A stretch of 64,000 nt of DNA from Gracilaria domingensis (Eukaryota > Rhodophyta > Florideophyceae > Gracilariales > Gracilariaceae), in the NCBI GenBank assembly GCA_022539475.1, contig VCMS01000282.1, forward strand, positions 1 to 64,000, written 5' to 3'. The notes beneath the pieces were generated by a model, which made no database searches, was not told where the DNA came from, and saw nothing but the letters and a program-made list of their open reading frames with translations. Of the stretch, positions 2,322-31,584 are shown piece after piece. Within the stretch, counting starts at the first letter, position 1, and every line of letters begins with the position of its first letter. The position numbers were made by a program, and so were the translations under genes.

Positions 2322-5287
2322 TGGTACTCTCGCCGAGGTGCCCTTGGCCCCGATACTATGGACACCTCGACGCCTCTCTTCGACGGATACAATTCCGATG
2401 TTCGTCGATTTCTCTTTTCTTCGAGAACGTTGCCACCCGTGGAAAGCCTGATGAGGAGCGTTCCTCCGAAATCTTGGGCTTCCTAAGTGGTGACGCCTTC
2501 GATCATTATTATAATAATTTCTCTGTAGATGGCGTGCTCACCCCGAACGCGGCCAACTACATATCAGTTAAGAAGTCCCTGCTCGATCGCTTTGGCGCTG
2601 CTGAGGAACCCGAGGAGTACATCCGAGAAGCTGTGACTGCCCGTTTGGACTACGGTGATCTCCTTGGTTCCCTCCAGCGCATGGACGCTTGCTTCGACAA
2701 GGCCGAGTTCAACGCGAAGGCCAAGTTCGGCCTTCTCCGTAAAGCGGTTATGGAGTACGCAGACCTAGCTCAGTTTGTGATATTCCGCGGAGCAAGCGAC
2801 TATAAGTCGTTGAAAGACCTCATCAAATCCTTTGTGGCCGGCAAAAAGGCCCTCGGAGCAGGTGGTTCACTGGCGTTTATGCCTCCTCCGAAGAAAGTGT
2901 TACAAAGGAGGCCCGTCGACCCTTCTGATAGGGATCCCACTGCAGACAAGGTGGATCAGCTAGCTAGTCAGCTTGCAGAACTCACTCTCTTGATGAAGAA
3001 GAAGTCAGGACCACCTCCGAAGGCTGATGGAGAGCAAGTTTGTGGCTACTGTCAGAAGCCTGGTCACTTTTCTACTCGCTGTCCACAGAATCCGCATCGC
3101 GATACGCGTTGTGGGGGTTGTGGAAAGATGGGACATTCCATCGCAACGTGTTGGAAGCGCCATTCGGAAAAGAAGGTCCGTTTCGATGCCGAAAATCAGA
3201 AAGAAATCCCGGAAGTTCCCAGACCCAACCAAGTTTCTGTAGTCACCGAGGATGACGTTCAGGATCGCGAGACTGTAGCGATGGCCAAACGAGCCGCTGA
3301 TGGCGCCCCATTGCCAAAGCAGGCCCGCCTGGAACATCGGGTTGGTGTCAAGGAGCTTCTGAACCCAGCAAGCGACACCCCATTTCGCTTGATTCGCTCA
3401 GCTACGCGTAATCGATCCGGGAAGCCTAAGAAGGCCTCCACAAAGAAGCTCTCTGGTAAGTCAATGCTCCAGGAGCACGCCGGAAAGTATAACGTAATGG
3501 AGGAGCTCGCGAATGCCCCGACCGGGCTCACATTCGGTCAACTCATTCGCGGGGACGCCGATGCGGCCAAGAAAGATCTGCGTCGAATCATCTCTGGCCG
3601 TTCAACGACCAGAAAGGTCAATGCGACCCAGGTCGAGCGTGAAAACTCTCGTCTTAAGGTTGTGCCTATTACAGTCTATGGGACCATGACCCAAGCCCTC
3701 TTGGACTCTGGCGCTGTCCCGAATCTAATTTCAGCAGAACTAGCGGACCATCTGCTACTGACACCGAACCCCACTGAAAGGACGATTAAAGTAGCTGATG
3801 GCAATGTTGCCCGCATTCGTGGTACTCTAGAGGGCGTTCCTGTAAGGTTCGATGACCTCCGAGTATCCCTCGAGTTTCTTGTTATCGAGAAGCCCCCCTT
3901 CGATGTAATCATCGGGAACCCCACGCTAGAAAAGCTGCATGCCTGTATCGATCTTGGTACACAAGAAGTCACCATGAGTTACAACAAGAAGCACGTCGTT
4001 ATAGGACTCGACTCCGATCGTTCCGGATTAGAAGCATTTGTCCCGTTGTCTGAGACAGATAGCGAAGATTTCACGTCAGACTCTGATGCTATCCCGTCTG
4101 ACTCTGAAGATGAGTCGGAGGACTTTGCTAACCTCCCCCTTCCAAAGCAGCGAACAACTGGTGGCGCCGAAGTGACCCTAGTGGCAGTAATGGAAAGGGA
4201 TGGGGACGCAGGATCCCAGGATGGCGAAGAGGAGAACGATGGTGAGGAAGAACCCGCCAATGTGACAGCGCAGCCCACCCAAGCCGGGCCGTTCGAAGGA
4301 CCTCAAGTATCTGACCAAGCCCGTCGACCGACTCAGGCTGAAGATTCCAACGGCCCTAACTTCACCTGGCGTACCATCGGGACTCAGATCCATCTGGATA
4401 GTTTGACCGCGGAGCGTGGGGAGAACCCTCATGCAAATAATATGCATATTGCCGGACCCGATGGCCCACAAATTCCTCCAGAGGGAGAAAGGGTGGCAGT
4501 CGGACCAGCACTGCGTCAGCAATCCCAGCTGATCTCCCAGTATGATGATGACGAGGATCGACGATTCGAAGACGCGGAGGAAGAAGTGCAGGCAGATCCC
4601 CCTGTCGAAGAAAGGTCCGGACCCAATCCCTCCTCCTTCCAGAGCGAGTCTACGGATACCAGCGTACAGCCAGAAGATGTGAATGTCGTGATTCCTACAA
4701 GTATTGCACCCAGAGCTAATAACGCCAGCGAGGACAGTGAAGTCCGGCCTCCTGACGATGGGCCCGTAGGTGAAAGCCCGGCGGAGTTCCCAGACGGTAG
4801 TGACGATGAGGACGACTCCTCACCGGAGGAAGTAGACCTCATTGGCTCACCACTCTACCGCGACTCTGACCTTACCATCCCGATCAGAGACGAAGTAGTT
4901 CTGCTTCCTTTAGCCGAAGGACAGTCAGTTACTGACTTCTTGGACGTGCGGGTTCAATTGCGACATCCAGTACCGTCACCCGCGCGTCCCCCTCATCTAG
5001 AAGCACAGAACTTACCGCTCAACCGCGTAGGAATGCTGGAGGACGACGACTCCGGCGGTTATGTCATATCATTTGAAGAAGAACTACCTCCGGACGAAAT
5101 CGACGCCCGGACCCCGGGAGATGATGAACATTCACAAGACCCAAGCCGCGACGAAGAAGTTGTGGCCGAGCCTACGTGCCCAGCGCAAGACATTGAGTAT
5201 TCTCTGCAAGATCCAATTGCGCAAGATTCACTCGGTCGCACGCTCGACCGACGTGATTACCCCCCCACACCAACAAGGAGGAGGTGA
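2228..5287 (+). CDS. gag: Element A Gag-protease region (fossil)
   Basis: Long frame of the element's structural protein, beginning within or just after the 5' LTR. It has a capsid-like N-terminal part, two nucleocapsid zinc knuckles of the form CX2CX4HX4C (CGYCQKPGHFSTRC and a second one starting CGGCGKMGH), and a retropepsin-like site LLDSGAVPNLIS. A long, strongly acidic Ser/Glu/Asp-rich stretch of about 400 residues then runs to the end and is unusual for Gag. The Pol frame overlaps the end by four bases in the -1 phase. In life the protein would form the virus-like particle and carry the protease. The region looks close to whole; the exact N-terminus is uncertain. Confidence 0.8.
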   Translation: MDWYSTRANFIFIVFAPFGCNRRRHHKNGVFMVLSPRCPWPRYYGHLDASLRRIQFRCSSISLFFENVATRGKPDEERSSEILGFLSGDAFDHYYNNFSVDGVLTPNAANYISVKKSLLDRFGAAEEPEEYIREAVTARLDYGDLLGSLQRMDACFDKAEFNAKAKFGLLRKAVMEYADLAQFVIFRGASDYKSLKDLIKSFVAGKKALGAGGSLAFMPPPKKVLQRRPVDPSDRDPTADKVDQLASQLAELTLLMKKKSGPPPKADGEQVCGYCQKPGHFSTRCPQNPHRDTRCGGCGKMGHSIATCWKRHSEKKVRFDAENQKEIPEVPRPNQVSVVTEDDVQDRETVAMAKRAADGAPLPKQARLEHRVGVKELLNPASDTPFRLIRSATRNRSGKPKKASTKKLSGKSMLQEHAGKYNVMEELANAPTGLTFGQLIRGDADAAKKDLRRIISGRSTTRKVNATQVERENSRLKVVPITVYGTMTQALLDSGAVPNLISAELADHLLLTPNPTERTIKVADGNVARIRGTLEGVPVRFDDLRVSLEFLVIEKPPFDVIIGNPTLEKLHACIDLGTQEVTMSYNKKHVVIGLDSDRSGLEAFVPLSETDSEDFTSDSDAIPSDSEDESEDFANLPLPKQRTTGGAEVTLVAVMERDGDAGSQDGEEENDGEEEPANVTAQPTQAGPFEGPQVSDQARRPTQAEDSNGPNFTWRTIGTQIHLDSLTAERGENPHANNMHIAGPDGPQIPPEGERVAVGPALRQQSQLISQYDDDEDRRFEDAEEEVQADPPVEERSGPNPSSFQSESTDTSVQPEDVNVVIPTSIAPRANNASEDSEVRPPDDGPVGESPAEFPDGSDDEDDSSPEEVDLIGSPLYRDSDLTIPIRDEVVLLPLAEGQSVTDFLDVRVQLRHPVPSPARPPHLEAQNLPLNRVGMLEDDDSGGYVISFEEELPPDEIDARTPGDDEHSQDPSRDEEVVAEPTCPAQDIEYSLQDPIAQDSLGRTLDRRDYPPTPTRRR

Positions 5288-8200
5288 TTCTAGAACGGAT
5301 CTCTCATCTCCCAAGGGATAGACGGGTGGACCTCCTCGCTGTTCTGGATAACTTGAATGTCATAGCATGGTCCTTGTATGATCTTAGGCCCTCTGACGTG
5401 CCGGTAACGCACAGGTTTGACCTCAGTGTCGAGACCCCAATTCATTCGAAGGTCCGAAGGCTACCCCCAAAGCATGACGACGTTGTTCGGAAAGAGGTCG
5501 ACAAAATGTTGTCCGCCGGGATCATCAAGCCGTCCACCTCTCCTTGGTCCTTCCCAGTTGTCATCGCACATAAGAAGGATGGAAAGCCCCGGTTCTGTGT
5601 CGACTATCGGGGTCTGAACCAGGTCATGACGCCCGACAGGTGGCCCCTGCCAAACATGGAACAGATTTTTGACGATTTGGGTGGTTGTTCGTTCTTCACG
5701 ACCCTAGACCTTTTCTCCGGATACTGGCAGGTGCGCATGGCCCCTGACTGCAAAGAAATGACGACTTTCGTTTGTCGTCAGGGAACCTTCCAGTTTGAAG
5801 TCATGCCTTTTGGTCTCATGAATGCCCCAGCCACGTTTCAAAGAATGATGGACGCGGTCCTTCATGGGGTGGAGTTTGCTCGCGTCTATATAGACGACGT
5901 TGTCATCTTCTCGAGAAGCCTGGAAGAACATTTGTACCACCTAACCAGGGTGCTCGAGATCCTTGCAAGTCATGGTCTGAAGATAAAAATATCCAAATGT
6001 GATTTTGCACAACCCCGTATCAAACTGCTTGGTCACGTCATCAACAAGGAAGGCACTTCGGTTGATCAAGACAAGATCGACGTCATCCAAAAGGCCCCCG
6101 AACCATCGACGGTAACCGAGCTCCGAAGTTTTCTCGGTCTAGCCAGTTATTATCGAAGGTTCATAAAGGATTTCGCAGATACGTCAGCAGTATTGCATGC
6201 TGCCACTACAGGGAAGGGAAAGCTGAATTTCACCAATGAGATGAAGACAGCGTTTAATGATCTAAAGGGAAAGTTAGTATCCCCGCCGGTCTTAGCATTT
6301 CCCGACTTTGAGAAGCCTTTTAGAGTTGAAACCGATGCTTCTTCAGTCGCGCTTGGTGCCGTTCTGTCACAAAAGAAAGAGGACGGAATGTATCACCCAA
6401 TTCAATTTGCCAGTCGCACGCTTAATGCCGCCGAGCGAAAGTATTCTACTTGCGAGAAAGAGGCCCTAGCCGTGGTCTTTGCCTTGAAGAAGTTTCGCAT
6501 GTATCTACTCGGAGGTCTCCCCTTTGAGCTTGTTACGGACCACCAAGCTCTGAAGTATGCATTCCAAAAGAAGGACATTCACGGGCGCCTAGCCCGATGG
6601 ATGGACCTGCTAGCGGAATACGAGTTCGTTATAGTCTATAGATCTGGCGATAAGAATCGGGCTGCCGACTATCTCTCTCGCTTTGCCGTTGGGGATCCAC
6701 CGGAGCCGGATGATGACGTGTCTGTTGTACTGAATGCAACGGACGAGGTCTATGACTTGGAGCCCTTCTGCGCGCACATCAAGTCGTACCTTGCCGCCTT
6801 TTCTTTTCCTGAAGAAGACCCTAAGATCCGCGCTTTGGTTAAGAGGAATGCGAAGAAGTTCTTCCTTTGGGAAGGTCTTCTCTATCGCCGTACCAAGAAA
6901 GGATTAAGAGTGGTACCCTCTGTAAGCAAGCGCCGTGGCATCCTCTCATCCTTTCATGATGACATAGGACATTGGGACTTGGAGGCTACTAAGGATCTGG
7001 TCCAGTTCCGATTCTGGTGGCCTGGAATGTACCCCGACATCGTTTCATATGTTCGCAGTTGTGATGGGTGTCAGTTCACAACACCCCTGCTTAAGTACCG
7101 GCCAGGACAAAGAGCCCCATTGACTGGTCTATTTCATACATTCTCTGTGGACTTCGCCGGTCCTCTTCCGGCTACCAGGAATGGCAACCGTTTTGCTCTG
7201 ATTGGTGTAGAACACATAACAGGATGGCCTATTGCCGCGGCCTACGGTAATCAGACCTCTACCACCGTCATTCACTTTGTTCGATCTCAGATCGTTTCCC
7301 CGTTTGGTTCCCCGCTGACGATCGTGTCCGACAACTTCAGTTCCTTCAAAGCCAAGGCAGTCGAAGCATACATGGAAAGTAAGAAGATATCCCTCAAGCC
7401 CACCATGGCCTATGCCCCTATGTCTAATGGCCGGGCTGAAAGAATGGTTGGAACCATCAAGAAATCGATTGCCAAAACAATCTTCAATAAGGGACAAGAA
7501 TGGGATGAAGCTCTCGAGCAGATAATTTACGGATACAGGAGGCGCCGGCTGGGTGGCGGGTTTTCTCCTTTTGAGCTCATGTATGGCACGGTCCCACGGA
7601 TGAGCTCAGACGACCTACCCCCTCTCATCGTAGATCCAACCCCCACTAATCGTCATCATGAACTACTTGCAAATTCCGCAGGCAGAGCTTCCAGAGTTCT
7701 ATCTCAACCCAATCGACAAGACGACCCCAAGTCCGGGCACCGGTTCAACGTCGGTGATGAGGTCTTGGTGATACATGGGAAGGCTCTGAATCCCAACGTG
7801 AAATGGCCTGCCTTTCAGTCAAAATTCTACGGACCCTGTAAGGTGGTTAAGGCCAGGCACCCCCGATATGTCCTAGTGTCCCCTCATAATCGTTACACTA
7901 GAGAAGGGGTCCACGCCCGCCGGCTCAAGCGGTATCATCGCCGACCAGTTCATCTGCAGGACGAGGTGGTAGCCACTATTACGGAAGGCGAAGACACCCC
8001 TGTCCCATATCCCACTCAGATCACTGTAATGCCACTCCGCGTTGACTACAATATCCTCACTGCACCCCACCTCTCGTGTCACTTTATCATTGGAGGGAAA
8101 AGCATACATTCATGGCTTAGCCCTTTGAACGTCTCTATCCCAGAGGTGGAAAGGGTTACCTGGACGCTGACGCATGCCTCACTCGCCCTGTTCTCAATCT

Positions 8201-8484
8201 CGGGCCCGTTCTTGAGTCGTAGAGGAGGATCTATCTTAAGAACATTATTTCGACGTGTGCACCAGAACTACGGCAGCAATATCGAGCCAGAATTCGCGGT
8301 ATATCTTTACCACCATGCAGTCTCCTTGCATGGGCATCTCCCAGAATCGCAATTCTACATACAAGAGACTCAGGACCATATTTCGCACTATGCTCGCACA
8401 GGAATCGCTCGGATACTCAGCTACACCCCCGACCCAGAGAAGCTAGCAGTACCCTTTCTCTTCCACTATACCACCGAGAATTAG
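5284..8484 (+). CDS. pol: Element A Pol: RT, RNase H, integrase (fossil)
   Basis: About 1066 residues in the -1 phase relative to Gag, overlapping its end, which fits the programmed -1 shift or reinitiation known in Ty3/gypsy elements. Seen in order: reverse transcriptase with the box YIDDVVIFS, RNase H beginning ETDASSVALGAVLSQ, the integrase HHCC zinc domain ending in SCDGCQ, and an integrase core with VDFAGPL and SDNFSSF. After the integrase there is an extra tail of roughly 150 residues (from about 8030) with no recognised domain; no chromodomain is visible. The frame looks whole. Confidence 0.88.
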   Translation: MILERISHLPRDRRVDLLAVLDNLNVIAWSLYDLRPSDVPVTHRFDLSVETPIHSKVRRLPPKHDDVVRKEVDKMLSAGIIKPSTSPWSFPVVIAHKKDGKPRFCVDYRGLNQVMTPDRWPLPNMEQIFDDLGGCSFFTTLDLFSGYWQVRMAPDCKEMTTFVCRQGTFQFEVMPFGLMNAPATFQRMMDAVLHGVEFARVYIDDVVIFSRSLEEHLYHLTRVLEILASHGLKIKISKCDFAQPRIKLLGHVINKEGTSVDQDKIDVIQKAPEPSTVTELRSFLGLASYYRRFIKDFADTSAVLHAATTGKGKLNFTNEMKTAFNDLKGKLVSPPVLAFPDFEKPFRVETDASSVALGAVLSQKKEDGMYHPIQFASRTLNAAERKYSTCEKEALAVVFALKKFRMYLLGGLPFELVTDHQALKYAFQKKDIHGRLARWMDLLAEYEFVIVYRSGDKNRAADYLSRFAVGDPPEPDDDVSVVLNATDEVYDLEPFCAHIKSYLAAFSFPEEDPKIRALVKRNAKKFFLWEGLLYRRTKKGLRVVPSVSKRRGILSSFHDDIGHWDLEATKDLVQFRFWWPGMYPDIVSYVRSCDGCQFTTPLLKYRPGQRAPLTGLFHTFSVDFAGPLPATRNGNRFALIGVEHITGWPIAAAYGNQTSTTVIHFVRSQIVSPFGSPLTIVSDNFSSFKAKAVEAYMESKKISLKPTMAYAPMSNGRAERMVGTIKKSIAKTIFNKGQEWDEALEQIIYGYRRRRLGGGFSPFELMYGTVPRMSSDDLPPLIVDPTPTNRHHELLANSAGRASRVLSQPNRQDDPKSGHRFNVGDEVLVIHGKALNPNVKWPAFQSKFYGPCKVVKARHPRYVLVSPHNRYTREGVHARRLKRYHRRPVHLQDEVVATITEGEDTPVPYPTQITVMPLRVDYNILTAPHLSCHFIIGGKSIHSWLSPLNVSIPEVERVTWTLTHASLALFSISGPFLSRRGGSILRTLFRRVHQNYGSNIEPEFAVYLYHHAVSLHGHLPESQFYIQETQDHISHYARTGIARILSYTPDPEKLAVPFLFHYTTEN

Positions 8485-16518: not shown

Positions 16519-19500
16519 ATGCGTTCCTGCACCGACGTCCTCAACCGCCTTCTACACGACGCCACCCTCAGCCTCTCCCACGACGCCGTCGTCGGATATC
16601 TCGACCGTTTCAAAGGCGTTCTCGAGCTCCCGCTACAAAAGTTCTCCTCCGCACAGATTCCCTTCCACCGCATCGCGTACTTCCGGCATGGCTGCGAGGT
16701 CATCTGGCACAAGGAGACCCGTCTCGACCTTCTCTTCGACTCCACCGACCGCGCAAAGGCGTTCACGAGCGACGCAATTGCGGTGAGGAAGCGCGACTTG
16801 GAACAGGCTGAAACGAATCGACTGGAGATGGAGGAGAAGTTGAAGGCTGATTTGATGTCAAGGCGTGCACCCCGATCGCGTCCCAGCGTGGCTTCTGCGT
16901 TTGCGGACCTGGTTCGCATCCCCGTTCATTATTGCAGCGTGCTTTCTGACCAATGGGTTTCCAGTGACTCCGCCAGCCACAAGAGACTGGAGCTCCCATC
17001 AATCGATGTACCCAATTCGATACAAATTGCCACCTATAATGTTTTGGACGATCACCATTTACCGTACGCAATAAAGAACCTCACTTCGTTGCGTTGGCAA
17101 GCCATTATTGAACAAGTCCGCCACAACCTGGCCCACTTTTGGATTCTCACCGAGGTCACGCCGCAGTTTGCCTCCACATTGCTTGAAGACCACACTATCA
17201 GATCCAACTACTTTGCCACCGATTCCGCGGCATCGTCCTTCCAAACCGTGTCGGGGGAGGCTGGCAGCACGGGGCAGTTAGTCCTCATTCGTCGCGACAT
17301 TGCTGTGCAGTCCGTGTTCTTCACAAGGACGCAGCTACACACAGGGAAGCGACTCGTGTTTGTAATGGCGCGCCTCCCCTCAGGGTCTAGCGTTGCATTA
17401 TGTGCCGTGCATCTCACGTCTGGTCAGCTTCATCAGTCTCGCTCACCCGCGGCGGTTGACAAGAGACGGCAGCAACTGCAATACGTGCTATCCAAACTGG
17501 ACCAGCTTCAACACGAATACGATCTGCATGTCATTGCTGGGGACTTTAATTTCAAGGGCGAATTGGATGACGCTGTCGCAGGCAGACTCTTAGAAGGATT
17601 CGTCGAAGCGGATCACACCCTGACTTCAGCCACGTTCGACCCGAGACAGAATAGTCTTGCTGGGCTCAATTCCAACCAAACCGCGCCGATGAGATTGGAT
17701 CGTATTTACATGCGCCAGCTGTCAAAAAATGGCTCGATTCAGGTTCAAGGGCATCGCATTCTCGGCCAAGATCCAATTCGTCTCCCGCACAACATCGAAG
17801 AAGTGAGTGAACTATGTCCCAGTGGCATACACGCTTCGGATCATTTCGGATTAATATCTAATTTTGTCGTCCATAACGGGATAGAACAAGAGGAACGAAC
17901 AGTTTCGTGGTCGACAGCATCAGCATTGGCAATCATTCCAGGGCATGACGTACAGGAATGTGTTGACACTCTTTGGCGAGCTGAATACGACCCCTCATAT
18001 CAAAAATGGCCGCCACATGTAAATCTCTTGTACCCTTTCGTGAACGTAGAGGCTATCCCCGAGGTTTGCTCTTCGATTCGTAACGCTCTGACCATTCAGG
18101 CGTATGAGCTTCCTGCTTCACTTCCTATGGAGATGGGTGGTGTTGGAACCTTCAAACACAAGTCAAGCCATACTGTATTTCTCTCTCCCGCTGATGGTCA
18201 ATTCGGGAAGCTACATGAAATCGTCCGACGGAGTGTTTCCCAAAGATACGGTATGAACTCAAGAACTTCTTCAGCACGGAGAAGATCAGATTACACTCCA
18301 CACATGACCATTGCGAAGCTCAAAGGTTATGAGGATGAACAAGTTCAGGATTTCGTACGGAAGGCTGAAATTCAATTACCCAGCATCGCTGAAACACTCA
18401 ATCGGTGCGAAGTAAACTCTCTTTCTGTGCTTCAAAGAATCCATGGTAAGATGATTGTGGTTGACAGCATTCAAATCCCGAACTCGGAGGAGTCACATCC
18501 TGTGAAACGATCTTTTGAACTAGTGAAATCGATCACAAGACAAATCTTCGGGGAAGCATCAAAACCGCAACTAATTCCAGTTGGATCTTCTCTCTTGCTG
18601 GATAAGCGCGTGTTTACTGATCTGGATATTGTGGTCTTACCTCCCGAAGAATGCAAAGAATATGATGCTTCTTCTTTCTTTCAGAAAATGCGGTCACTGC
18701 TTCCTGACAGCGTACACATGCGACTGATCCCTGATGCTCACTGTCCCATCATCTCTCTTTGCGTCAGAAACCCCAACTATTTGCCAATCGATATCATATT
18801 CGGAGATGGTGATTTTACCCGCGAAATCGTCAATGACTCCTCAGCGCTTCAGACGAAAATGGAAATGTACGATACTGCTAGAGCAAACATGGTGAAAGAG
18901 GCTTTGTTTCATTTGAAACTGTGGGCGCAGTCGAAACAGTTCTGCGGAAGAGCCTTCAATTTGTTTCCTGGCATCGCGTGGCCTGTAGCCTTGTTCTGCC
19001 TCCTGGCAGATGATGAAGAGCTGAAATTGGAGAACTGGAGATCTATTTTGACAAGGTTTTTCGACGAGTTCCACAACATGGACTGGAAACGCTTCGCAAT
19101 CAAGATGGACGGGAAGGTTCGCCGAGACTCGTTACGATCTTTGAATGGAAGAGATTGCAGTGGACATGCATGCGTCATTTTCGCCCCAACATCTGCGCTT
19201 AACGTTGCAGAGTTTGTTGTGTCAGCAGCACTCAAATCGTTTTGCAAGGAAGCCAAGCATGCGCTGGCAGTGTTGCGTGCAGACTCATGGGAACGTATGT
19301 GGGCTGAATACGTTGAAGAGGCCATGCGGATAGAAAACTCGTACGAATATTGCATCGACGTCGTGGTGAGAATGCCACACGGCGTGGATCGAGAGGAGAT
19401 ATCTGGGTGGCTCAAGGGGAAGTTTGTGCGTATCATCGAACGCCATTTCGAATCCAAGGGGATTGCGGTACGACCCACCACGGAACTGCAATGGCAAGAG

Positions 19501-19710
19501 TTCACTAGTGACGGTATTCCATTAACTGAAGGGGTTGTTTCCTGTGGAATTGATTCGGACTTAACGACGGTAGAGAGTTCGTCCTGGCACGTATTCATCT
19601 CTGCAGCTGAAGCAGAATTAAGGGATAAGTTCCTGAGATCCGATAAACGGCCGATTAACTCTAAGATATCAATTTTACTCAGGCATCTACCGTCGGTAGA
19701 TATTGGGTGA
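16519..19710 (+). CDS. Four-domain RNA-end processing/repair protein (MJ1316-EEP-2H-nucleotidyltransferase)
   Basis: 1063 residues in one exon; the ATG sits in a strong context (gccaccATG). Residues ~5-85 match the MJ1316 (DUF504) RNA cyclic-end recognition domain: VLNRLL, VGYLDRFKG, IPFHRIAYF, EVIWHKETRLD. Residues ~165-455 form an endonuclease/exonuclease/phosphatase fold with all its landmarks (TYNVLDD, ILTEV, AGDFNFK, ASDHFG); CCR4, Angel (a 2',3'-cyclic phosphatase) and TDP2 belong to this superfamily. Residues ~460-650 carry two HxT/N motifs of a 2H phosphoesterase (HVNLLYPF near 499, HMTIAKL near 594). Residues ~665-1060 are a poly(A)-polymerase-type nucleotidyltransferase: VGSS, then TDLDIVVL, third aspartate in PIDIIFG, and a central-domain NLFPGIAWP. 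The likely role is recognition of a 2',3'-cyclic-phosphate RNA end, its opening or trimming, and nucleotide addition. The chemistry is inferred from families; the domains are seen directly. Confidence 0.85.
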   Translation: MRSCTDVLNRLLHDATLSLSHDAVVGYLDRFKGVLELPLQKFSSAQIPFHRIAYFRHGCEVIWHKETRLDLLFDSTDRAKAFTSDAIAVRKRDLEQAETNRLEMEEKLKADLMSRRAPRSRPSVASAFADLVRIPVHYCSVLSDQWVSSDSASHKRLELPSIDVPNSIQIATYNVLDDHHLPYAIKNLTSLRWQAIIEQVRHNLAHFWILTEVTPQFASTLLEDHTIRSNYFATDSAASSFQTVSGEAGSTGQLVLIRRDIAVQSVFFTRTQLHTGKRLVFVMARLPSGSSVALCAVHLTSGQLHQSRSPAAVDKRRQQLQYVLSKLDQLQHEYDLHVIAGDFNFKGELDDAVAGRLLEGFVEADHTLTSATFDPRQNSLAGLNSNQTAPMRLDRIYMRQLSKNGSIQVQGHRILGQDPIRLPHNIEEVSELCPSGIHASDHFGLISNFVVHNGIEQEERTVSWSTASALAIIPGHDVQECVDTLWRAEYDPSYQKWPPHVNLLYPFVNVEAIPEVCSSIRNALTIQAYELPASLPMEMGGVGTFKHKSSHTVFLSPADGQFGKLHEIVRRSVSQRYGMNSRTSSARRRSDYTPHMTIAKLKGYEDEQVQDFVRKAEIQLPSIAETLNRCEVNSLSVLQRIHGKMIVVDSIQIPNSEESHPVKRSFELVKSITRQIFGEASKPQLIPVGSSLLLDKRVFTDLDIVVLPPEECKEYDASSFFQKMRSLLPDSVHMRLIPDAHCPIISLCVRNPNYLPIDIIFGDGDFTREIVNDSSALQTKMEMYDTARANMVKEALFHLKLWAQSKQFCGRAFNLFPGIAWPVALFCLLADDEELKLENWRSILTRFFDEFHNMDWKRFAIKMDGKVRRDSLRSLNGRDCSGHACVIFAPTSALNVAEFVVSAALKSFCKEAKHALAVLRADSWERMWAEYVEEAMRIENSYEYCIDVVVRMPHGVDREEISGWLKGKFVRIIERHFESKGIAVRPTTELQWQEFTSDGIPLTEGVVSCGIDSDLTTVESSSWHVFISAAEAELRDKFLRSDKRPINSKISILLRHLPSVDIG

Positions 19711-23124: not shown

Positions 23125-25255
23125 CTGTTGTCGTTGTGTGCGTGTGTTCGTGTCCTCGTCACGTCATAGTGGCAAGTCCTGGAGTTCTCACTACATCTGC
23201 AAGTGGCACGAGCCACTGGATGACACCACAACAGCCCTTACAGTAACACCTTGTTACAGCGGGTACACGACGCAACGTGGTGCCACCTCTGGCAGCGCCT
23301 CGCTACACTCGCAATGCAAATTCAACGCGACACATGCCATTTCCCGAAGAAAGAGCTCCCGTGGCTCGTGGCTTTTCGTAAGGCGACGAAGGTATGGCAT
23401 CCTCGTTGACAAATCCTTCTCGGGATGCAATCTCCTGCCCATGGCCAATCGCCGCGTGCCATGAGGCACACCTCGGTAAAACCGTTGGTGGCCTTTGTTG
23501 CCCTTTGATCTGCACCTCCATTCACAACGCGGCAACGGGTTGCCTCAACGGGATTCACAGTTGTCGGGCTTTCGGGCACCAACTCAGCGGCGAAGGTTTT
23601 CTTGCCGTCTCCCCAAGCGAGAACTCCCCCACACGCATTTCGGGCTTGTGTTGCTCATCATGGGCTGCATCAACACTCGACGCATGCGCAACCGAACAAG
23701 CTCCGCTCAACCTGCAAACGTTTCCCTTCCGTCGTCGAGAAGCCGTTCGTCAAAATGTCTATCAGCGATGGCATCGACGTCACGCCGCAGTCCACTATGT
23801 CCACCATTCAGTTTCAGAGCGAGGCCCTCAACACTGTCATCACCTCCCTGCTCACCACACTCGTCATCGCCAACTTGGTAAGCGTCATCAACCGACTGGT
23901 GTTTCTCTCTCGAAACGACCTCTTCTGCTATCGTTCCTTCGCCCGAGCATACGTCTTCCTCAACTCGGACGACCCTCTACGACTCTGGTACTGGCTGCGT
24001 GGTCGTTATGAATATCGCGGCGACAAGGAACCTCCCCTCCGCCACAAGATTCGCAAACGCCGCCTTATCGCCCCGCTGTTTGCGCGTCTGTGTATCTTGG
24101 TTGTCAGCATTGGTTCCATTGCACTGGCGCTGCCCTCGGAAAAGCGCCTTGACGCATGCAGTCGTGGCGACTACAACCTTGTTCAGTCCGTGCCCAACAG
24201 AGAGCTTGTTGTTCCCGAACGTTCCGATGTGATTGAAGTATGCGCGCAAATCCCACTCGAAACAAGGCTCGGAACCGTGAGGTCATCTGCTTCGTTCTGC
24301 TCTTTTGCGCTCTCAATTGGTGATTTGGCCACTCTTGCCGACTTGTCGTCTTCAGTACAGGAACTTCCGGATATTTCGGCTGTGGCAGTGGGCTATGAGA
24401 ATTCTAGCGGTCTCTTTGCATCAGTCGTATTGTCCAGAGGCTCATTTCAGGGCATTGGTGCTTTCGTGGAGTGGAGGGCTGAGAACGGTGATAGATTTCG
24501 TTCTCTGCTACCTTCCTGGACCGCTGACCGACATGTTCAGGTTGTTGTGGATGCCATAAACTCGTTTTCGGAGGAAGAGTGCAGTGTGGTGCTCTCCGTT
24601 GACGAAAGCAATGACGTTGGAACCTTCAGAGTTGCAGCGTTGGACTGCAATTTTGATGCGGATGCGGCGATACGTCACATATCCATACGGATGAGAGAAA
24701 GTCTCAGTTTCCAAAGAGAACAAGGAAACTCACTCAAGGCAAGGTTAGTGGACGGCTCAGAGTTTCGGACAAGTCGAACGTGTGCCATCGACGTCACCGT
24801 TCAGCGCCCATTGATCAACATTGTTCCCCTTTTCATCGGGCTGGTCATGGCGTTCGTTCTCAATGTAACCGTTATGTGTCTGGTTTCGCGATACGGCAAT
24901 ACCATGGATGGCGCGTACCACATTGTACGCGAGGTACTAGGGCATGACACCGGCGCCAATCCGCTGCAGATTGACACATCTGGGATTGATGTGGAGAACG
25001 TAGCTTTGAAAAAGTTTGTTTGCGCCGATGGCGTTTCTGCACACGTCGGGTTTATTCGCGGTGTGGGAGACAACGTGGTGGAGGACTTTGGTAGCGGTCT
25101 GCGGGTGGGTCGGTGCATGCAGGTGGCTTGTAGAGGTGCCCGCTTTGTAACCGAACTTTCTGAGAAAGTGCCGTAGAAAGGTGCTATGATCCAGCTACAT
25201 TTGTATTACAGTTTCGTTCTTCGTTCGTTTTCCACGTGTAATTTTTAAATTATAA
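23125..25255 (+). repeat. Tandem duplication unit 1 (membrane-protein locus)
   Basis: 5' flank ('gtgtcctc' region), gene and 3' flank ('cgttttccacgtgtaat') recur in the same order at 25389-29298. The non-coding flanks are more diverged than the coding part. Confidence 0.7.
23755..25176 (+). CDS. Three-pass membrane protein of unknown family, intact copy
   Basis: 473 residues; start at caaaATGtc, shared with the second copy. There is no cleavable signal. Hydrophobic spans are seen at about 26-46 (LNTVITSLLTTLVIANLVSV), 105-128 (LFARLCILVVSIGSIALALP) and 360-385 (INIVPLFIGLVMAFVLNVTV). Between spans two and three lies a ~230-residue, probably lumenal or extracellular, region with several cysteines. 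The last ~90 residues are soluble and strongly conserved between copies (for example EVLGHDTGANPLQIDTSGID). No enzyme or receptor motif is recognised. It may be a lineage-specific surface protein. Confidence 0.75.
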   Translation: MSISDGIDVTPQSTMSTIQFQSEALNTVITSLLTTLVIANLVSVINRLVFLSRNDLFCYRSFARAYVFLNSDDPLRLWYWLRGRYEYRGDKEPPLRHKIRKRRLIAPLFARLCILVVSIGSIALALPSEKRLDACSRGDYNLVQSVPNRELVVPERSDVIEVCAQIPLETRLGTVRSSASFCSFALSIGDLATLADLSSSVQELPDISAVAVGYENSSGLFASVVLSRGSFQGIGAFVEWRAENGDRFRSLLPSWTADRHVQVVVDAINSFSEEECSVVLSVDESNDVGTFRVAALDCNFDADAAIRHISIRMRESLSFQREQGNSLKARLVDGSEFRTSRTCAIDVTVQRPLINIVPLFIGLVMAFVLNVTVMCLVSRYGNTMDGAYHIVREVLGHDTGANPLQIDTSGIDVENVALKKFVCADGVSAHVGFIRGVGDNVVEDFGSGLRVGRCMQVACRGARFVTELSEKVP

Positions 25256-27119
25256 TCGTTTTATAATAATAATGCGACTGGCTGTACACGTATCTTTCAA
25301 ACCTAAAAATATTATTGTAACAATTCGCAGATTATTTCTCAAAAATGTCATCAAGTTTTATTCCGATTGCTTCAGTTATTGGCTTTGTTGTCGATGTATA
25401 CGTGTGACCGTGTCCTCCTCACATTATGGACCCAAGAAACTGTAAAGATACCACAACGACGCTTACAGCAATAAAGGCCAGCGACTACACGGTGCGGGAT
25501 GGTGCCACCATGGGCGCCATCTCGAAGGGCAAATTCAACGCTGGGAGTCCCAAAACGAGCCCATGCGCCTGGTGGCATTACGTAACGTGGGTATGACATG
25601 TGCGTTGATAGCTCCTTTTCATACGAGAGCACAATCTCCCGTTCAAGTGTCCAATCGCCGCGTGCTCTAAAGCACGCATCGGTAAAACCGTTAGCAGATT
25701 GCCGTCGTTGCCTTTTGATCTGGAACTCAGTTCACAACTGATTCACCACACGGCAACAGGTTGCCTCAACGAGATGCGCAGTTGTCGTGCTGCTCAATGA
25801 GCACTAGCGCAGCAGAGATTCTTCTCTCCTCACCTCCTCAGCGAGGCGGCTCCTCATAAACAGCTCCGGCCTGTGGCGCTTATCATGGACTGCGTCTGTG
25901 ATGCTTTAAACGCTCGACGCATGCGCAACCGAACAAGCTCCGCTCAACCTGCAAACGATTCTCTTCCGTAGCCGAGAAGCCGATCGTCAAAATGTCTATT
26001 ACCAAGGGCATCGACGTTACTCCGCAGTTCACTATGTCCACCATCCAGTTTCAGAGCGAGATTCTCAACACTGTCATCACCTCCCTGCTCACCACACTCG
26101 TCATCGCCAACTTGGTAAGCGTCATCAACCGACTGGTGTTTCTCTCTCGAGACGACCTCTTCTGCTATCGTTCCTTCGCCCGAGCATACGTCTTCCTCAA
26201 CTCAGACGATCCGCTACGACTGTGGTACTGGCTGCGCGGTCGTTATGATTATCGCAGCGACAAGCAACCTCCCTCTCCTCTCAAGATTCGCAAACGCCGC
26301 CTTATCGCCCCGCTGTTTGCCCGTTTGTGTATCTTACTTGTCACTATTGGTTCCATTGCATTGGCGCTGCCCTCGGAAAAGCGTCTTGACGCATGCAGTC
26401 AGGGTGACTATATCGTTGTTCAATCCATGCCAAGCAGTAAGCTTGCTGTTCCCGAACGTCCCGATATAGTTGAAGCATGCTCGCAGATCCCACTCGAAAC
26501 GCGGCTTGGAATTGTTAGGTCCTCCGCTTCATTTTGCAATTTTGGGTTCTTTGTCGGTGATTTGGAGGATCAGACTGAGATGTACCCGTCTATCCCAACA
26601 AACCTTTCACAGTTTTCCGCTGCAGAAGTGGTTTATGAGAAGAGAAGTGGTCTCCTTGCATCGGTCATTTACTCCGGCGGCACAAAGTACGGCATTGGTT
26701 CTTTCGTGGAGTGGAAGACTGAGAACGGTGACACGTTTCGTTCTCTGTTGCCTTCTTGGAGTGCTGAACTGCATATTCAGGTTATTGTGGATGCCATAAA
26801 CTCCATGGACGAAATATTCGCCCCGTTGGAAGAGTGCAATGTGCTGTTTTCCGACAGTGTAGATGATGAGGAATATTCCTCAAGCATGGGAGTGTTGAGC
26901 TGTACTTTTGATGTGGAGGCGGCGGTACGTTACATATCCATTTGGATGAGAGAAAGCCTCAGTTTGGAAAAGGAGCAAACAACGTCTCTCAAGGCACATT
27001 TTATGGACGGCTATGAATTTATGACAAGTCGAACGTGTGCTATCGACGTCACCGTTCAGCGCCCATTGATCAACATTGTTCCCCTTTTCATCGGGCTGGT
27101 CATGGCGTTCGTTCTCAAT

Positions 27120-28904
27120 AGACATACAACGAAAATACATAACTTTTGCTTAATAGATGTATCTTCTAGTTTACTACTATTTCTTCCGAGAAATAGGGTA
27201 GTATACAGAAATATACCACCTCACAAAAACTCAGACTACAATAAAGAATATTTAGCACACTCACAGTAACCTAACATATAGCATAAAAATTAGAAACAAG
27301 TAGAAATGCAAAGATCTATTCTATTAGTAGAAAAGTAAATCTTCTAAGAGATGACTCTGTATATAAGCAAAACATAGATGTCCGACTTTGCTCGTTATCC
27401 GACAGAGAGCCCAAGCCGCATTCCTTTCTTACTACGCAACCAATCACCCCCGAACATGCCTCGAAAAGCATAAATCTGCCTGCTGCTCAACGCCTAGAGC
27501 GAGAGGCCAATTTACAACAATTTTCGAATAAAAAACTTGTAAAAAACTCTCACGAAAAAAACAATTCAGACTGCACTATCTACGATTCGTTTTATTTTCA
27601 GAATGGCTCGCAATCAATTCTGTTGATGAAAATGTTTTCATCTATTGCGTTTTTAAAGCTCTAAGATGTAATTAATCGTGTTGAGAAAAAAGGTTGGAAT
27701 TCTGGACGCAGACGTCCCTTTACAATTTCCGAGAAAGATATTTTCTTCATGACCCTAACAACTCTTAAACATGGCGGAAAATGGGACTTTCTTGGTCAGA
27801 TGTTCAGTATCACCGGATCTACTTTTCAAAAGGTTATAATTAAATTTATAACAGCTGTAGCCGAAGATTTGTTTCATGAGTACGTCACGTTAAATGATGG
27901 TCGTTGGACAATGAAAAAGGTTTTAAAGAATAATTTAAGCTTTCAAAATTTTCCATTCTGTCGTTACGCAACTGATGTCATGTTCCAGCAAGCCTTTCGC
28001 CCATCTGGGAGTTTAGAGGAAGGGAAAAAATACTACAGCGGGAAACATAAATTATATGGATACAAATCGGTAGTGTCTGTTTTGTCAAATGTTTTAGCAA
28101 TTTTTGTTATGCCGCATGCTCCGGGTGCTACCTCCGACATTGATATTTTTCAAAACAATATAGACGATCACAAGACGGCATTGAAGAAGCGAAACGATGA
28201 AGGTTTAAATTTTTTGATCGATACGCGAGATCTAATTTCGAAATATGAGAATTCTTGGGGTGTTTTATTGGACAAAGGGTACCAGGGCGCAGCTGAGGTG
28301 CGTGCCATTCATCCTAAGAAGAAACCGCAACGTGGACATTTAACTTTTGATGAAGAAGAACAAAATTCTAAGGTGTCATCTGATCATGTTTTGGTTGAAA
28401 ATTATTTTGGCCGATTAACTCAGCTTTGGAACGTTCTAGGTTCGAAATATTGTTGGAATGAAGCCGTATAGGACTACATATTTTTATTTTGTGCTGCTCT
28501 GACAAATGCTCATATAATGGAAAATCCGCTCAGAGCCGCTGACGGAGAATTTTATAATAGAATTCGAAGCCGGCTAATGTCTATTGGTAAAGAATCTTTG
28601 ACGAAGCGCAAACTTTCTCAAAAGAAGTATCGCGCAAAACGGCAGAGGAAAATGGATGCGCATTTTAGTTCCTTCAGGTCCGATGATGAAAACATCGAAC
28701 CGGGAAATATTTAATGATTTGCGCAATATCTAAGTATTTCGGAGATTTCAAAGTCTTTTGGTGAAATAAACGTTATTTTCTTTCTTTTATAATGTGTGCT
28801 CTTCTACAAGCTGTTTTTTTCTTTACTGTGTTGCTGCTCATTGACCACTAATAAGTTGTTTTTCTTTTATTCGCGCAAACAGCCACTATTAGTAGGGAAG
28901 ATCT
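27120..28904 (+). mobile_element. PIF/Harbinger-like DNA transposon
   Basis: 1785 bp inserted into the membrane-protein gene and flanked by the 3-bp duplication AAT (27117-27119 and 28905-28907), the size used by PIF/Harbinger elements, although their usual target is TAA/TTA. The terminal inverted repeat is very short or decayed (both ends begin AGA). The element is more AT-rich than the host gene. It carries one transposase region and no visible second (Myb-like) ORF. Confidence 0.75.
27749..28714 (+). pseudogene. Harbinger-type DDE transposase, interrupted by an in-frame TAG
   Basis: DDE_Tnp_4-type nuclease: first Asp in RYATDVMFQ, then KYYSGKHKLYGYK, second Asp in LLDKGYQG, and the Glu in VENYFGRL. 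The frame runs to a TAG at 28469-28471 and then continues in the same phase from 28472 to 28714, ending in a Lys/Arg-rich C-terminus. Upstream of the ATG the frame stays open back to 27665 (SGRRRPFTISEKD), so the true start is probably earlier and lost. With one premature stop and no clear start the transposase is probably dead, or acts only as a substrate for another copy. Confidence 0.75.
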
Positions 28905-29832: not shown

Positions 29833-31584
29833 ATGGTAATCAGATGCTTCCCCGTTCTCCTCTTACTCTTTTCCGTGGTCTACGCCAGGACACTTCGTAT
29901 TTGTCACACTAATGACTTCCATGCCAAGTACCTCGAAGTCGGAGACACCGACGTCAAATGTCAATGGTGGGATATGGTGAAAGACGAGTGTTATTCCGGT
30001 ATCGCACGTCTTTCAACCGCTCTCAAGTCTCTCTCGTGTGACGTAAAGATCCAAGCCGGCGATTGGGTTCAAGGATCACTTCTGGACACAGTCTTCAAAC
30101 AAGACATTGCCATTGAAGCTTACAAATGGATCAACTATGATTTTGCCACATTTGGAAACCATGAGTTCGACTACGGTAACACGCATATCAATGACACCGT
30201 CCGTCAGATCGCTCCACGAACCACGTTTCTTGCTTCAAACGTATTTTTCTCGGGCCAGGGAATGGATGATCTTCCTCTTTTCCGCTACGTTGACCGCCAT
30301 GATATCTGCTGGGTGTCTGCTCTCACTAAAGAGACTCTTGACCTCGCGGCTGTTGAGGATAATGTTTCCATCGAAGATGAGGATTCGTTCATGGTCAAGT
30401 ACATCAACCAATGTGCCCAGACGAAGAACGTCATCGCCATTACGCACCAGGGTTACAACAACGATCTTGAGACTTGTCGCAACGTGAAAGAGATTGATAT
30501 CATCATCGGAGGGCATTCGCACACAAACCTCAATCAAGGACAGTATCCCGTCAAGGTCACTCGCGATGATGGCTCTGTTTGTTTTGTGACGCAGACGTAT
30601 GCGCATGGTCGTTACGTTGGTGTGCTCGACGTTGGCTTTGATGAAAATGGGAATGTCTTGCTCGAATCTCATGCGTATGTCCCGATGGACTTCCGAGTGA
30701 AGTACGACCCCGAGGTGCTCTTAAAAGTACAGTTGTACAACTATCAAGTGGCTAAGAAAGCGGGAGAGGTCATTTGCACCGCGACAGATGATGTGGTCGG
30801 TGGACAGCTTTGCAGAGGTCCGGTAAACCTTCCTGATGACGGATCTTACGTGCACTCCGGTTGCAGCATGGGTCACTTGGTGTGCGATGCGATGATATAC
30901 GTTTCGGCCGCTTACGCATCCGATATTCCTAGACTTTGTTTCATGAATGGTGGTACTTTACGAAACTCGTTCAGCAAAGGAAAGGTTACACTTCGCGACA
31001 TTGTTAACGTTCTTCCGTTTGGTAACACGATTGTTTCGATGAAGCTGAAGGGATCGGCAGTTCTTGATGCTCTCAACCATGGATTTTCCGTGTACGGGAC
31101 CGACAACAAGGGGGCTTTCCCAGGCGGTATGAGCAACATGGTGGTGAAGGCGCATGTGGATGGATCGAAACCGGAAGGAAGTATGGTAACTGTTGAAAGC
31201 GTAACTATCGACGGAAAGGTTTTGGAAGCGGATAAGGAGTACATTTTGCTAACTAACAGTTATATCGCAGGTGGCGGCGACGGCTATTCGTGGCCTGTCG
31301 AGGGCACTGACTGGGGAACTATGCTTCGAGAAGCCACGCAAACTTACCTTGAGAAGCATGACCCGTATTCACCGGTGACTGAGGGAAGACTGTTGATGAG
31401 GGGATCGAATGTGGCCTCTGTTAATAAAGCCAGCGCTGCCGCATATGCCTCTGATAGTGGAGATTCTTCGCTGGCGTTCATGGATGAGGCCGTCGACGTT
31501 GAAACGGAACTGGATGAAACGCTGGTCACCCCACCCAAGGTTAGGAGAACGAGCACATGCCAAGATGACACGTGTCATATTTGA
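29833..31584 (+). CDS. Secreted 5'-nucleotidase (metallophosphatase family)
   Basis: 583 residues, the usual family length. The signal peptide ends near residue 18 (LLLLFSVVYA). The N-terminal calcineurin-like domain has every metal-ligand motif: HTNDFHA (D28, H30), AGDWVQGS (~76-83), FGNHEFDYG (~108-116), THQGYNND (~208) and GGHSHTN (~226). The C-terminal 5_nucleotid_C domain has MNGGTLRNS (~370) and the substrate-stacking loop GGGDGYSWP (~480). It should release phosphate from extracellular AMP or other nucleotides, feeding phosphate and nucleoside scavenging. No clear GPI signal is visible; the tail ends with two cysteines. The substrate is inferred from the family. Confidence 0.9.
   Translation: MVIRCFPVLLLLFSVVYARTLRICHTNDFHAKYLEVGDTDVKCQWWDMVKDECYSGIARLSTALKSLSCDVKIQAGDWVQGSLLDTVFKQDIAIEAYKWINYDFATFGNHEFDYGNTHINDTVRQIAPRTTFLASNVFFSGQGMDDLPLFRYVDRHDICWVSALTKETLDLAAVEDNVSIEDEDSFMVKYINQCAQTKNVIAITHQGYNNDLETCRNVKEIDIIIGGHSHTNLNQGQYPVKVTRDDGSVCFVTQTYAHGRYVGVLDVGFDENGNVLLESHAYVPMDFRVKYDPEVLLKVQLYNYQVAKKAGEVICTATDDVVGGQLCRGPVNLPDDGSYVHSGCSMGHLVCDAMIYVSAAYASDIPRLCFMNGGTLRNSFSKGKVTLRDIVNVLPFGNTIVSMKLKGSAVLDALNHGFSVYGTDNKGAFPGGMSNMVVKAHVDGSKPEGSMVTVESVTIDGKVLEADKEYILLTNSYIAGGGDGYSWPVEGTDWGTMLREATQTYLEKHDPYSPVTEGRLLMRGSNVASVNKASAAAYASDSGDSSLAFMDEAVDVETELDETLVTPPKVRRTSTCQDDTCHI

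What the first reader, a model, noticed from the sequence alone, without database searches (positions are those of the whole stretch)
16519..19710. Single protein combining RNA-end recognition, EEP nuclease, 2H phosphoesterase and nucleotidyltransferase
All four domains keep their signature residues, in the order MJ1316, EEP, 2H, poly(A)-polymerase type. Each is separately linked to RNA 2',3'-cyclic-phosphate or 3'-end chemistry, so one polypeptide could sense a cleaved RNA end, heal it and add nucleotides. That is a self-contained RNA repair or tailing device. The catalytic roles are known from families; the combined pathway is inferred.
Basis: partly seen in the sequence, partly recalled or inferred. 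Interest (0 to 1): 0.78.

Follow-up and report, generated by a model that had tools for sequence, protein, structure and literature searches.

The report
Four-domain RNA end-healing and tailing protein
An alga, most likely a red alga, makes one long protein that joins four RNA-end modules (a broken-end recogniser, two phosphate-clearing enzymes and a poly(A)-polymerase-like tail adder), and the same combination turns up in several groups of bacteria, so it looks like a real but untested machine for cleaning and tailing cut RNA.

Summary
One uninterrupted frame (16519-19710, +, 1063 aa) encodes, in order, MJ1316, EEP, 2H and a nucleotidyltransferase. In the alga the first three pass Pfam's curated cut-offs; the fourth does not. 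Homologues settle it: a profile of six bacterial proteins matches the alga co-linearly (252.6 bits), and in Myxococcus and Calothrix the last module is a class I poly(A) polymerase. A low-confidence model of the alga's own segment has poly(A) polymerases as its 11 best PDB matches.

The fusion is not confined to this alga: Myxococcota (frames of 895 residues or more in 47 of 64 MJ1316 matches), Actinomycetota, a Calothrix conjugative plasmid, Planctomycetota. Eight EEP, two 2H and two nucleotidyltransferase residues are invariant in the 18 proteins compared.

"Self-contained repair" is only partly supported: no ligase is fused, and the EEP domain is closest to TDP2, a 5'-end enzyme. Best reading: an RNA 3'-end healing-and-tailing enzyme, with every reaction step inferred; a new member of the MJ1316 RNA-repair fusions already noted in print.

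The parts
16519..19710 (+). whole gene, one uninterrupted frame, 1063 aa plus stop
   Evidence: GCCACCATGC at the start codon
16519..16713 (+). MJ1316 RNA cyclic-group end recognition domain
   Evidence: Pfam PF04457 8.9e-14; place 16519-16713
17000..17890 (+). EEP (endonuclease/exonuclease/phosphatase) domain, TDP2-like; edges approximate
   Evidence: Pfam PF03372 7.5e-8; Foldseek best hits TDP2, TM by target up to 0.83; eight active-site residues in 18 of 18 proteins
17900..18440 (+). 2H phosphoesterase domain, motifs HVN (H500) and HMT (H595); edges approximate
   Evidence: Pfam PF13563 2.5e-22
18480..18800 (+). poly(A)-polymerase palm (nucleotidyltransferase) with D701, D703, D758; edges approximate
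   Evidence: MTPAP-like 7.4e-4, below cut-off; profile of alga plus seven homologues vs mammalian PAP 3.4e-51; residues
18860..19290 (+). poly(A)-polymerase central domain; edges approximate
   Evidence: Nrap_D2 1.5e-5, below cut-off; PAP_central in homologues; Foldseek on the modelled segment
19330..19707 (+). C-terminal domain, read as the RRM-like RNA-binding domain of class I poly(A) polymerase; edges approximate
   Evidence: Myxococcota profile aligns this part (to residue 993) in the alga protein and the matching part of both canonical algal PAPs; Foldseek alignments span nearly whole PAP chains, at low TM

Best explanation
It is an RNA 3'-end healing-and-tailing enzyme. The MJ1316 domain docks RNA fragments that end in a 2',3'-cyclic phosphate. 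The 2H domain opens the cyclic phosphate (or trims the end), and the EEP domain removes the remaining phosphate or a blocking group, leaving a 3'-OH. The class I poly(A)-polymerase module, with its own RNA-binding domain, then adds nucleotides, probably adenosines. The tail either marks the fragment for decay or restores length before a separate ligase such as RtcB seals it. Shown here: the domains, their order, fusion in one polypeptide in an alga and four bacterial phyla, and conservation of catalytic residues. Inferred: every reaction, their order, the substrate and the nucleotide added.
For: Domain identity and order in the alga and homologues. Co-linear similarity over most of the protein, 252.6 bits. 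EEP active-site set, both 2H histidines and two nucleotidyltransferase aspartates in 18 of 18 proteins; third aspartate in 17 of 18. PAP module: profiles vs mammalian PAP 3.4e-51 and human PAP gamma 3.4e-58; the 11 best fold matches of the alga segment are all PAPs. Context: in a Pseudomonadota genome a lone MJ1316 gene overlaps the end of an rtcB gene by one base (L120), and RtcB joins such ends (recalled). In Myxococcus eversor two RlaP RNA-repair nucleotidyltransferase frames lie about 2.7 kb away (L117, Pfam); in M. dinghuensis two similar frames lie about 1.7 kb away (L116, by eye). A two-domain MJ1316-2H protein exists in Streptomyces. An EEP protein acting on 2',3'-cyclic phosphates is known, Angel2 (PMC12265940, passages).
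Against: No biochemical data. The EEP domain is nearest to TDP2 (5' adducts); ANGEL2 ranks 39 with TM by target 0.52 against up to 0.83 for TDP2. 2H enzymes of the ThpR type are recalled to leave a 2'-phosphate, which must be removed before tailing. No ligase is fused. The RlaP frames stand on the other strand with other ORFs between, both cases are one genus, and the Polyangia region shows none in its ORF listing. The alga PAP module is divergent: Pfam below cut-off, fold matches with TM by target only 0.34-0.39 and rmsd about 10 A from a model of mean pLDDT 57, and Cys where 8 of 18 proteins have the PAP-like Tyr. Ten Myxococcota genomes looked at keep MJ1316 with no other part of the fusion in the roughly 3.2 kb locus, so the modules are separable.
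Confidence: 0.55

Rival explanations
1. Tagging for decay with no repair: the protein oligoadenylates RNA fragments made by stress RNases so that exonucleases remove them; 2H and EEP only clear the end so that the tail can be added.
For: Class I PAP module; no fused ligase.
Against: MJ1316 pairs with rtcB in one bacterium and RlaP lies near the Myxococcus gene, both repair contexts; the alga has RtcB.
Confidence: 0.25
2. Two-ended processor: the EEP domain works like TDP2 on 5' adducts or caps while 2H and PAP work on the 3' end.
For: TDP2 is the best solved relative of the EEP domain by profile (1.8e-18, 1.5e-23) and by fold.
Against: Nearest solved relative does not fix the substrate within the EEP superfamily; MJ1316 and 2H point to 3' ends.
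Confidence: 0.12
3. Nucleotide-signal circuit: an OAS/cGAS-like synthase joined to 2H and EEP phosphodiesterases that break down its own oligonucleotide product.
For: PAP and OAS/CD-NTases share a fold (recalled); profile match to a CBASS synthase, CdnC 2.3e-7; 2H and EEP enzymes degrading 2-5A are known (recalled).
Against: Class I PAP matches are far stronger (3.4e-58); no PADLOC family matched the alga or the Myxococcus protein at E 0.1.
Confidence: 0.05
4. Decayed or mis-assembled gene with no function.
For: Very divergent (end branch 3.29) and a single copy.
Against: Uninterrupted 1063-codon frame and every listed EEP, 2H-histidine and nucleotidyltransferase residue kept.
Confidence: 0.03

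Closest known systems
Long myxobacterial MJ1316-EEP-2H-PAP protein (e.g. Myxococcus eversor, L012/L117)
   Same: Same modules in the same order, co-linear over most of the protein
   Different: 24-27% identity to the alga; PAP module scores above Pfam cut-off; the alga copy is a long branch
Calothrix brevissima plasmid protein BAY66805.1, annotated 'RNA 2',3'-cyclic phosphodiesterase'
   Same: Full architecture by Pfam
   Different: On a plasmid typed conjugative; the database name reflects only the 2H part
Human LENG9 and the Streptomyces MJ1316-2H protein
   Same: MJ1316 with 2H (Streptomyces tested; LENG9 architecture recalled)
   Different: No EEP and no PAP module in the Streptomyces protein; LENG9 has a CCCH finger (recalled)
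Class I poly(A) polymerase (PAPOLA, yeast Pap1; alga contigs C33 and C178)
   Same: Palm and central domains and C-terminal part
   Different: Canonical PAPs lack MJ1316, EEP and 2H
TDP2
   Same: EEP domain by profile and fold
   Different: TDP2 is a separate 5'-tyrosyl phosphodiesterase
MJ1316/RlaP/RtcB RNA-repair systems of Burroughs and Aravind 2016
   Same: A later paper of the same authors states that MJ1316 shows diverse fusions to RNA-repair domains across eukaryotes (PMC6514570, passage)
   Different: The 2016 paper is not held, so whether this exact architecture is drawn there could not be checked; no ligase here

Membership tests
MJ1316 domain (PF04457) | Pfam curated score | tested here: met
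   52.4 bits, cut-off 26.3
EEP superfamily (PF03372) | Pfam score and N, E, H, D, N, D, D, H active-site set (set recalled) | tested here: met
   32.8 bits, cut-off 24.5; 8 residues in 18 of 18
EEP superfamily (PF03372) | 2',3'-cyclic phosphatase activity as in ANGEL2 | not testable with these tools
   nearest fold is TDP2, ANGEL2 rank 39
2H phosphoesterase (PF13563) | Pfam score | tested here: met
   80 bits, cut-off 27
2H phosphoesterase (PF13563) | two HxT/S motifs | tested here: inconclusive
   second motif HMT; first is HVN; N in 7 of 18 proteins and 24 of 70 motif loci
Class I poly(A) polymerase | Pfam curated score in the alga protein itself | tested here: not met
   PAP_central 11.8 vs 27.1, MTPAP-like 20.1 vs 27, Nrap_D2 25.3 vs 33
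Class I poly(A) polymerase | same by homologue profile, fold and catalytic aspartates | tested here: met
   the models have mean pLDDT 55-57 and the PAP fold matches low TM
Class I poly(A) polymerase | adds adenosines to RNA 3'-OH | not testable with these tools
   no assay
Self-contained RNA repair system | RNA ligase present | tested here: not met
   no ligase family among the Pfam matches of the protein; RtcB elsewhere in the genome

The most novel reading that the evidence does not exclude
A widespread, unstudied enzyme family in which a eukaryotic-type class I poly(A) polymerase has been wired to a broken-end sensor and two end-clearing enzymes, so that one polypeptide converts RNase-cut RNA ends into tailed RNA, in bacteria of at least four phyla and in an alga.
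Probability: 0.45. Interest if true: 0.75.

Novelty: new member of a known kind. Interest (0 to 1): 0.5.

Why it matters
RNA cut by many stress or toxin RNases carries 2',3'-cyclic phosphate ends that most polymerases and ligases cannot use (general knowledge, recalled). A single protein that recognises, clears and tails such ends would explain how cells handle them in one step, and it puts a eukaryotic-type poly(A) polymerase into bacteria. The question is directly testable with purified protein and a myxobacterial knockout.

Tried and rejected
Single-sequence pattern scans of viral contigs and genome contigs found no relative; the 2H motif scan of viral contigs found nothing; an alignment-based scan of viral contigs gave 18 pattern matches, none a relative; tblastn of the alga protein on phages found nothing. 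So no giant-virus or phage copy was seen. No eukaryotic genome collection is available, so spread in other algae, fungi or animals was not surveyed.

Recent bacterial transfer into the alga: neither supported nor excluded. In the 18-protein tree the alga is an end branch of 3.29 with unresolved placement.

Two separate genes or an annotation artefact: rejected. Listed defence systems: no PADLOC match at E 0.1 for the alga and Myxococcus proteins. NCBIfam gave only below-cut-off matches. Rfam found nothing in the window at gathering scores. The promoter/terminator scan found no more than its shuffles.

AlphaFold: full-length model mean pLDDT 55.3, PAP segment 57.3. Fold matches are read only as support for profile results.

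Literature searches: MJ1316 with RNA repair (1 paper), MJ1316 (2 papers), DUF504 (0), LENG9 (41 papers, 20 listed, none followed), four RNA-repair terms (5 papers, 4 listed), RlaP with RNA repair (2), ANGEL2 with cyclic phosphate (10, 8 listed), 2H phosphoesterase with exonuclease phosphatase and poly A polymerase (0). Passages were read in PMC6514570, PMC7824862 and PMC12265940; the others were seen as listings only. Burroughs and Aravind 2016 is not held.

Rows left out of the 18-protein count and tree: L150, L154, L158 (cut or partial frames), L051 and L074 (cut), L012, L050, L054 and L060 (same genomes as L117, L116, L114 and L115), L058 (not re-entered), Streptomyces L145 and L146 (two-domain).
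Full report
Source. The window is contig C282 of a 77.9 Mb assembly of 680 contigs. There are 12 Phycobilisome matches in the genome, 10 on contig C680 and 8 of these full-length, so the organism is most likely a red alga. A glaucophyte is not excluded. The search for ribosomal RNA failed twice for technical reasons.

The observation. A single frame, 16519-19710 on the + strand, encodes 1063 residues without a stop. The frame is open further upstream but has no other in-frame ATG; the ATG at 16519 lies in GCCACCATGC. Pfam finds MJ1316, Exo_endo_phos and 2_5_RNA_ligase2 above the curated cut-offs. Nucleotidyltransferase families are found only below them. On the alga sequence alone the fourth domain would therefore be doubtful.

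Homologues. A degenerate DNA pattern for the first 2H motif, run over genome contigs, gave 70 loci. In 7 of these 70 the surrounding frame matches the alga protein far beyond the 2H domain: L012, L050, L051, L054, L058, L060 and L074, all titled as Myxococcota (BLASTP E 1e-33 to 2e-46). The other 63 match chiefly in the 2H domain. Four of the seven were scanned by Pfam: all four show MJ1316, Exo_endo_phos, 2_5_RNA_ligase2 and PAP_central above cut-off. A profile made from six Myxococcota proteins, without the alga, scores 252.6 bits on the alga protein, over residues 3-749 (223.3 bits) and 786-993 (26.4 bits). The printed E of 1.4e-78 is for a set of three sequences. The last part of that profile (from position 637-641 to 961 and 1022) matches the two canonical poly(A) polymerases of the alga itself, on contigs C33 and C178.

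The fourth module is a class I poly(A) polymerase. A profile with the alga and seven Myxococcota rows matches mammalian PAP at 3.4e-51; a broader 12-row profile matches human PAP gamma at 3.4e-58. An AlphaFold model of the alga segment is poor (mean pLDDT 57.3). Its 11 best PDB matches are all poly(A) polymerases, with alignments along nearly whole chains, but with TM by target of only 0.34-0.39 and rmsd near 10 A. At the place of the PAP tyrosine that, as I recall, contacts the incoming nucleotide, 8 of 18 proteins have Tyr (seven Myxococcota and Calothrix), the alga has Cys and the rest have His, Asp or Glu. Nucleotide preference may therefore differ.

The EEP module. All eight active-site positions examined are the same in 18 of 18 proteins. 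By profile the nearest solved relative is TDP2 (1.8e-18, 1.5e-23). By fold TDP2 also leads (TM by target up to 0.83), with ANGEL2 at rank 39 (0.52). TDP2 works on 5' adducts; Angel2 hydrolyses 2',3'-cyclic phosphates (PMC12265940, passages). The EEP substrate is therefore open.

The 2H and nucleotidyltransferase residues. H500 and H595 are in 18 of 18. Two residues after the first His stands N in 7, T in 9, S in 1 and P in 1. G689, D701 and D703 are in 18 of 18, S690 in 17 of 18, and the third aspartate (D758, aligned by eye) in 17 of 18. The P and both exceptions belong to the second tandem copy of Pyxidicoccus fallax.

Spread. MJ1316 was sought in whole genomes. Myxococcota: 63 of 195 genomes, 64 matches, 47 of them in open frames of at least 895 residues; frame length alone does not prove the fusion, which I checked by profile in the regions fetched. 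Of the other 17 matches, 13 were looked at: ten hold MJ1316 with no other part of the profile in the roughly 3.2 kb locus; two carry MJ1316, EEP and 2H in frames of 748 and 659 residues, one of them with PAP sequence in another frame; one runs off its contig. Pseudomonadota: 2 of 398, in frames of 149 and 568 residues, read by eye as stand-alone MJ1316 genes. Planctomycetota: 8 of 392 (7 over the cut-off). Two of the 8 (G779, G792) match the profile through 2H into the PAP part; G750 matches MJ1316-EEP-2H and runs off its contig; G638 has MJ1316 and 2H in different frames; three frames are 85-89 residues; the eighth, G992, is below the cut-off and did not match the profile. The phylum of a Lokiarchaeia genome: 37 of 227 (35 over the cut-off), 32 of 37 in frames of 185 residues or fewer, five in frames of 307-404; the two longest gave no profile match. 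tblastn of the Myxococcus protein on plasmid records found 7 records: Calothrix brevissima (94% covered), two Embleya (87 and 75%) and Nonomuraea (77%), and three Streptomyces with 11-24% covered. Profile matches in the four long ones reach into the PAP part. Two of the three Streptomyces loci were fetched and show MJ1316 with 2H only (one by Pfam). The Embleya and Nonomuraea records are megabase-sized, so calling them plasmids may be wrong. In all, the fusion is seen in the alga and in four bacterial phyla (Myxococcota, Actinomycetota, Cyanobacteriota, Planctomycetota). No eukaryotic collection could be searched. The alga's place in the tree is unresolved because of its long branch.

Context. 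In one Pseudomonadota genome a 94-residue MJ1316 gene overlaps rtcB by one base on the same strand (RtcB 6.5e-167). In Myxococcus eversor two RlaP frames lie about 2.7 kb from the fusion gene, on the other strand with other ORFs between. The M. dinghuensis region shows what look like the same two genes by eye, about 1.7 kb away. The Polyangia region shows no such ORF in its listing, and the Pyxidicoccus contig ends too near to tell. RlaP is described as an RNA-ligase-associated nucleotidyltransferase (PMC7824862, passages). Calothrix neighbours scanned: a dynamin-family GTPase and two proteins without a match; the plasmid is typed as conjugative. The alga encodes RtcB on another contig.

Mechanism. 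From these facts I read the protein as a 3'-end healing-and-tailing enzyme: MJ1316 holds the cyclic end, 2H opens it, EEP clears the remaining phosphate, PAP extends. The anatomy is shown; the chemistry is inferred. The protein has no ligase, so it can prepare and tail ends but not seal them.

Novelty. [quoted passage not shown] I therefore file the alga protein as a new member of a known kind. What I add, without knowing whether the 2016 survey has it, is the identity of the fourth module as a class I PAP, the TDP2-like nature of the EEP, the spread over four bacterial phyla, and the rtcB and RlaP neighbours.

Noticed in passing
L114 6623-9796 (Pyxidicoccus fallax, - strand): Tandem second copy of the fusion gene in which the first 2H motif is HxP, the nucleotidyltransferase GS is GA and the third Asp is Glu: possibly a degenerating or regulatory paralogue.
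   Followed up: partly
L086, L093-L099, L108, L110: Ten Myxococcota genomes in which an MJ1316 closely similar to the fused one (141-158 bits to the fusion profile) has no other part of the fusion in the ~3.2 kb locus: apparent loss of the enzymatic modules while the end-recognition domain is kept.
   Followed up: partly
L120 1462-3182: 94-residue MJ1316 gene overlapping the end of rtcB by one base in a Pseudomonadota genome.
   Followed up: yes
L146 3977-4855 (Streptomyces exfoliatus plasmid): Two-domain MJ1316-2H protein (frame of 293 residues) with no CDS listed in the plasmid gene table, which is incomplete.
   Followed up: partly
window 2228-8484 (+) and 39574-45293 (-): Two sets of retroelement-like ORFs; reverse transcriptase and RNase H domains confirmed by Pfam for 5284-8484 only, the rest read by eye.
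   Followed up: partly
window 23602-25176 and 25992-27269 (+): Tandem pair of closely similar, membrane-protein-like ORFs (by eye); the first has no Pfam match.
   Followed up: partly
window 61390-62262 (+) and 62315-63226 (-): Two similar HAD-type hydrolase genes facing each other; the second matches Hydrolase_3 just below its cut-off.
   Followed up: partly
window 27749-28471 (+): DDE_Tnp_4 transposase-like ORF.
   Followed up: partly
window 32875-33744 (-): Glycosyl hydrolase family 16 gene next to a 5'-nucleotidase gene (29833-31584, +).
   Followed up: partly
window 16519-19710: Third-position GC falls from 0.78 at the 5' end to 0.39-0.58 in the second half, along with a regional change in base composition.
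   Followed up: partly
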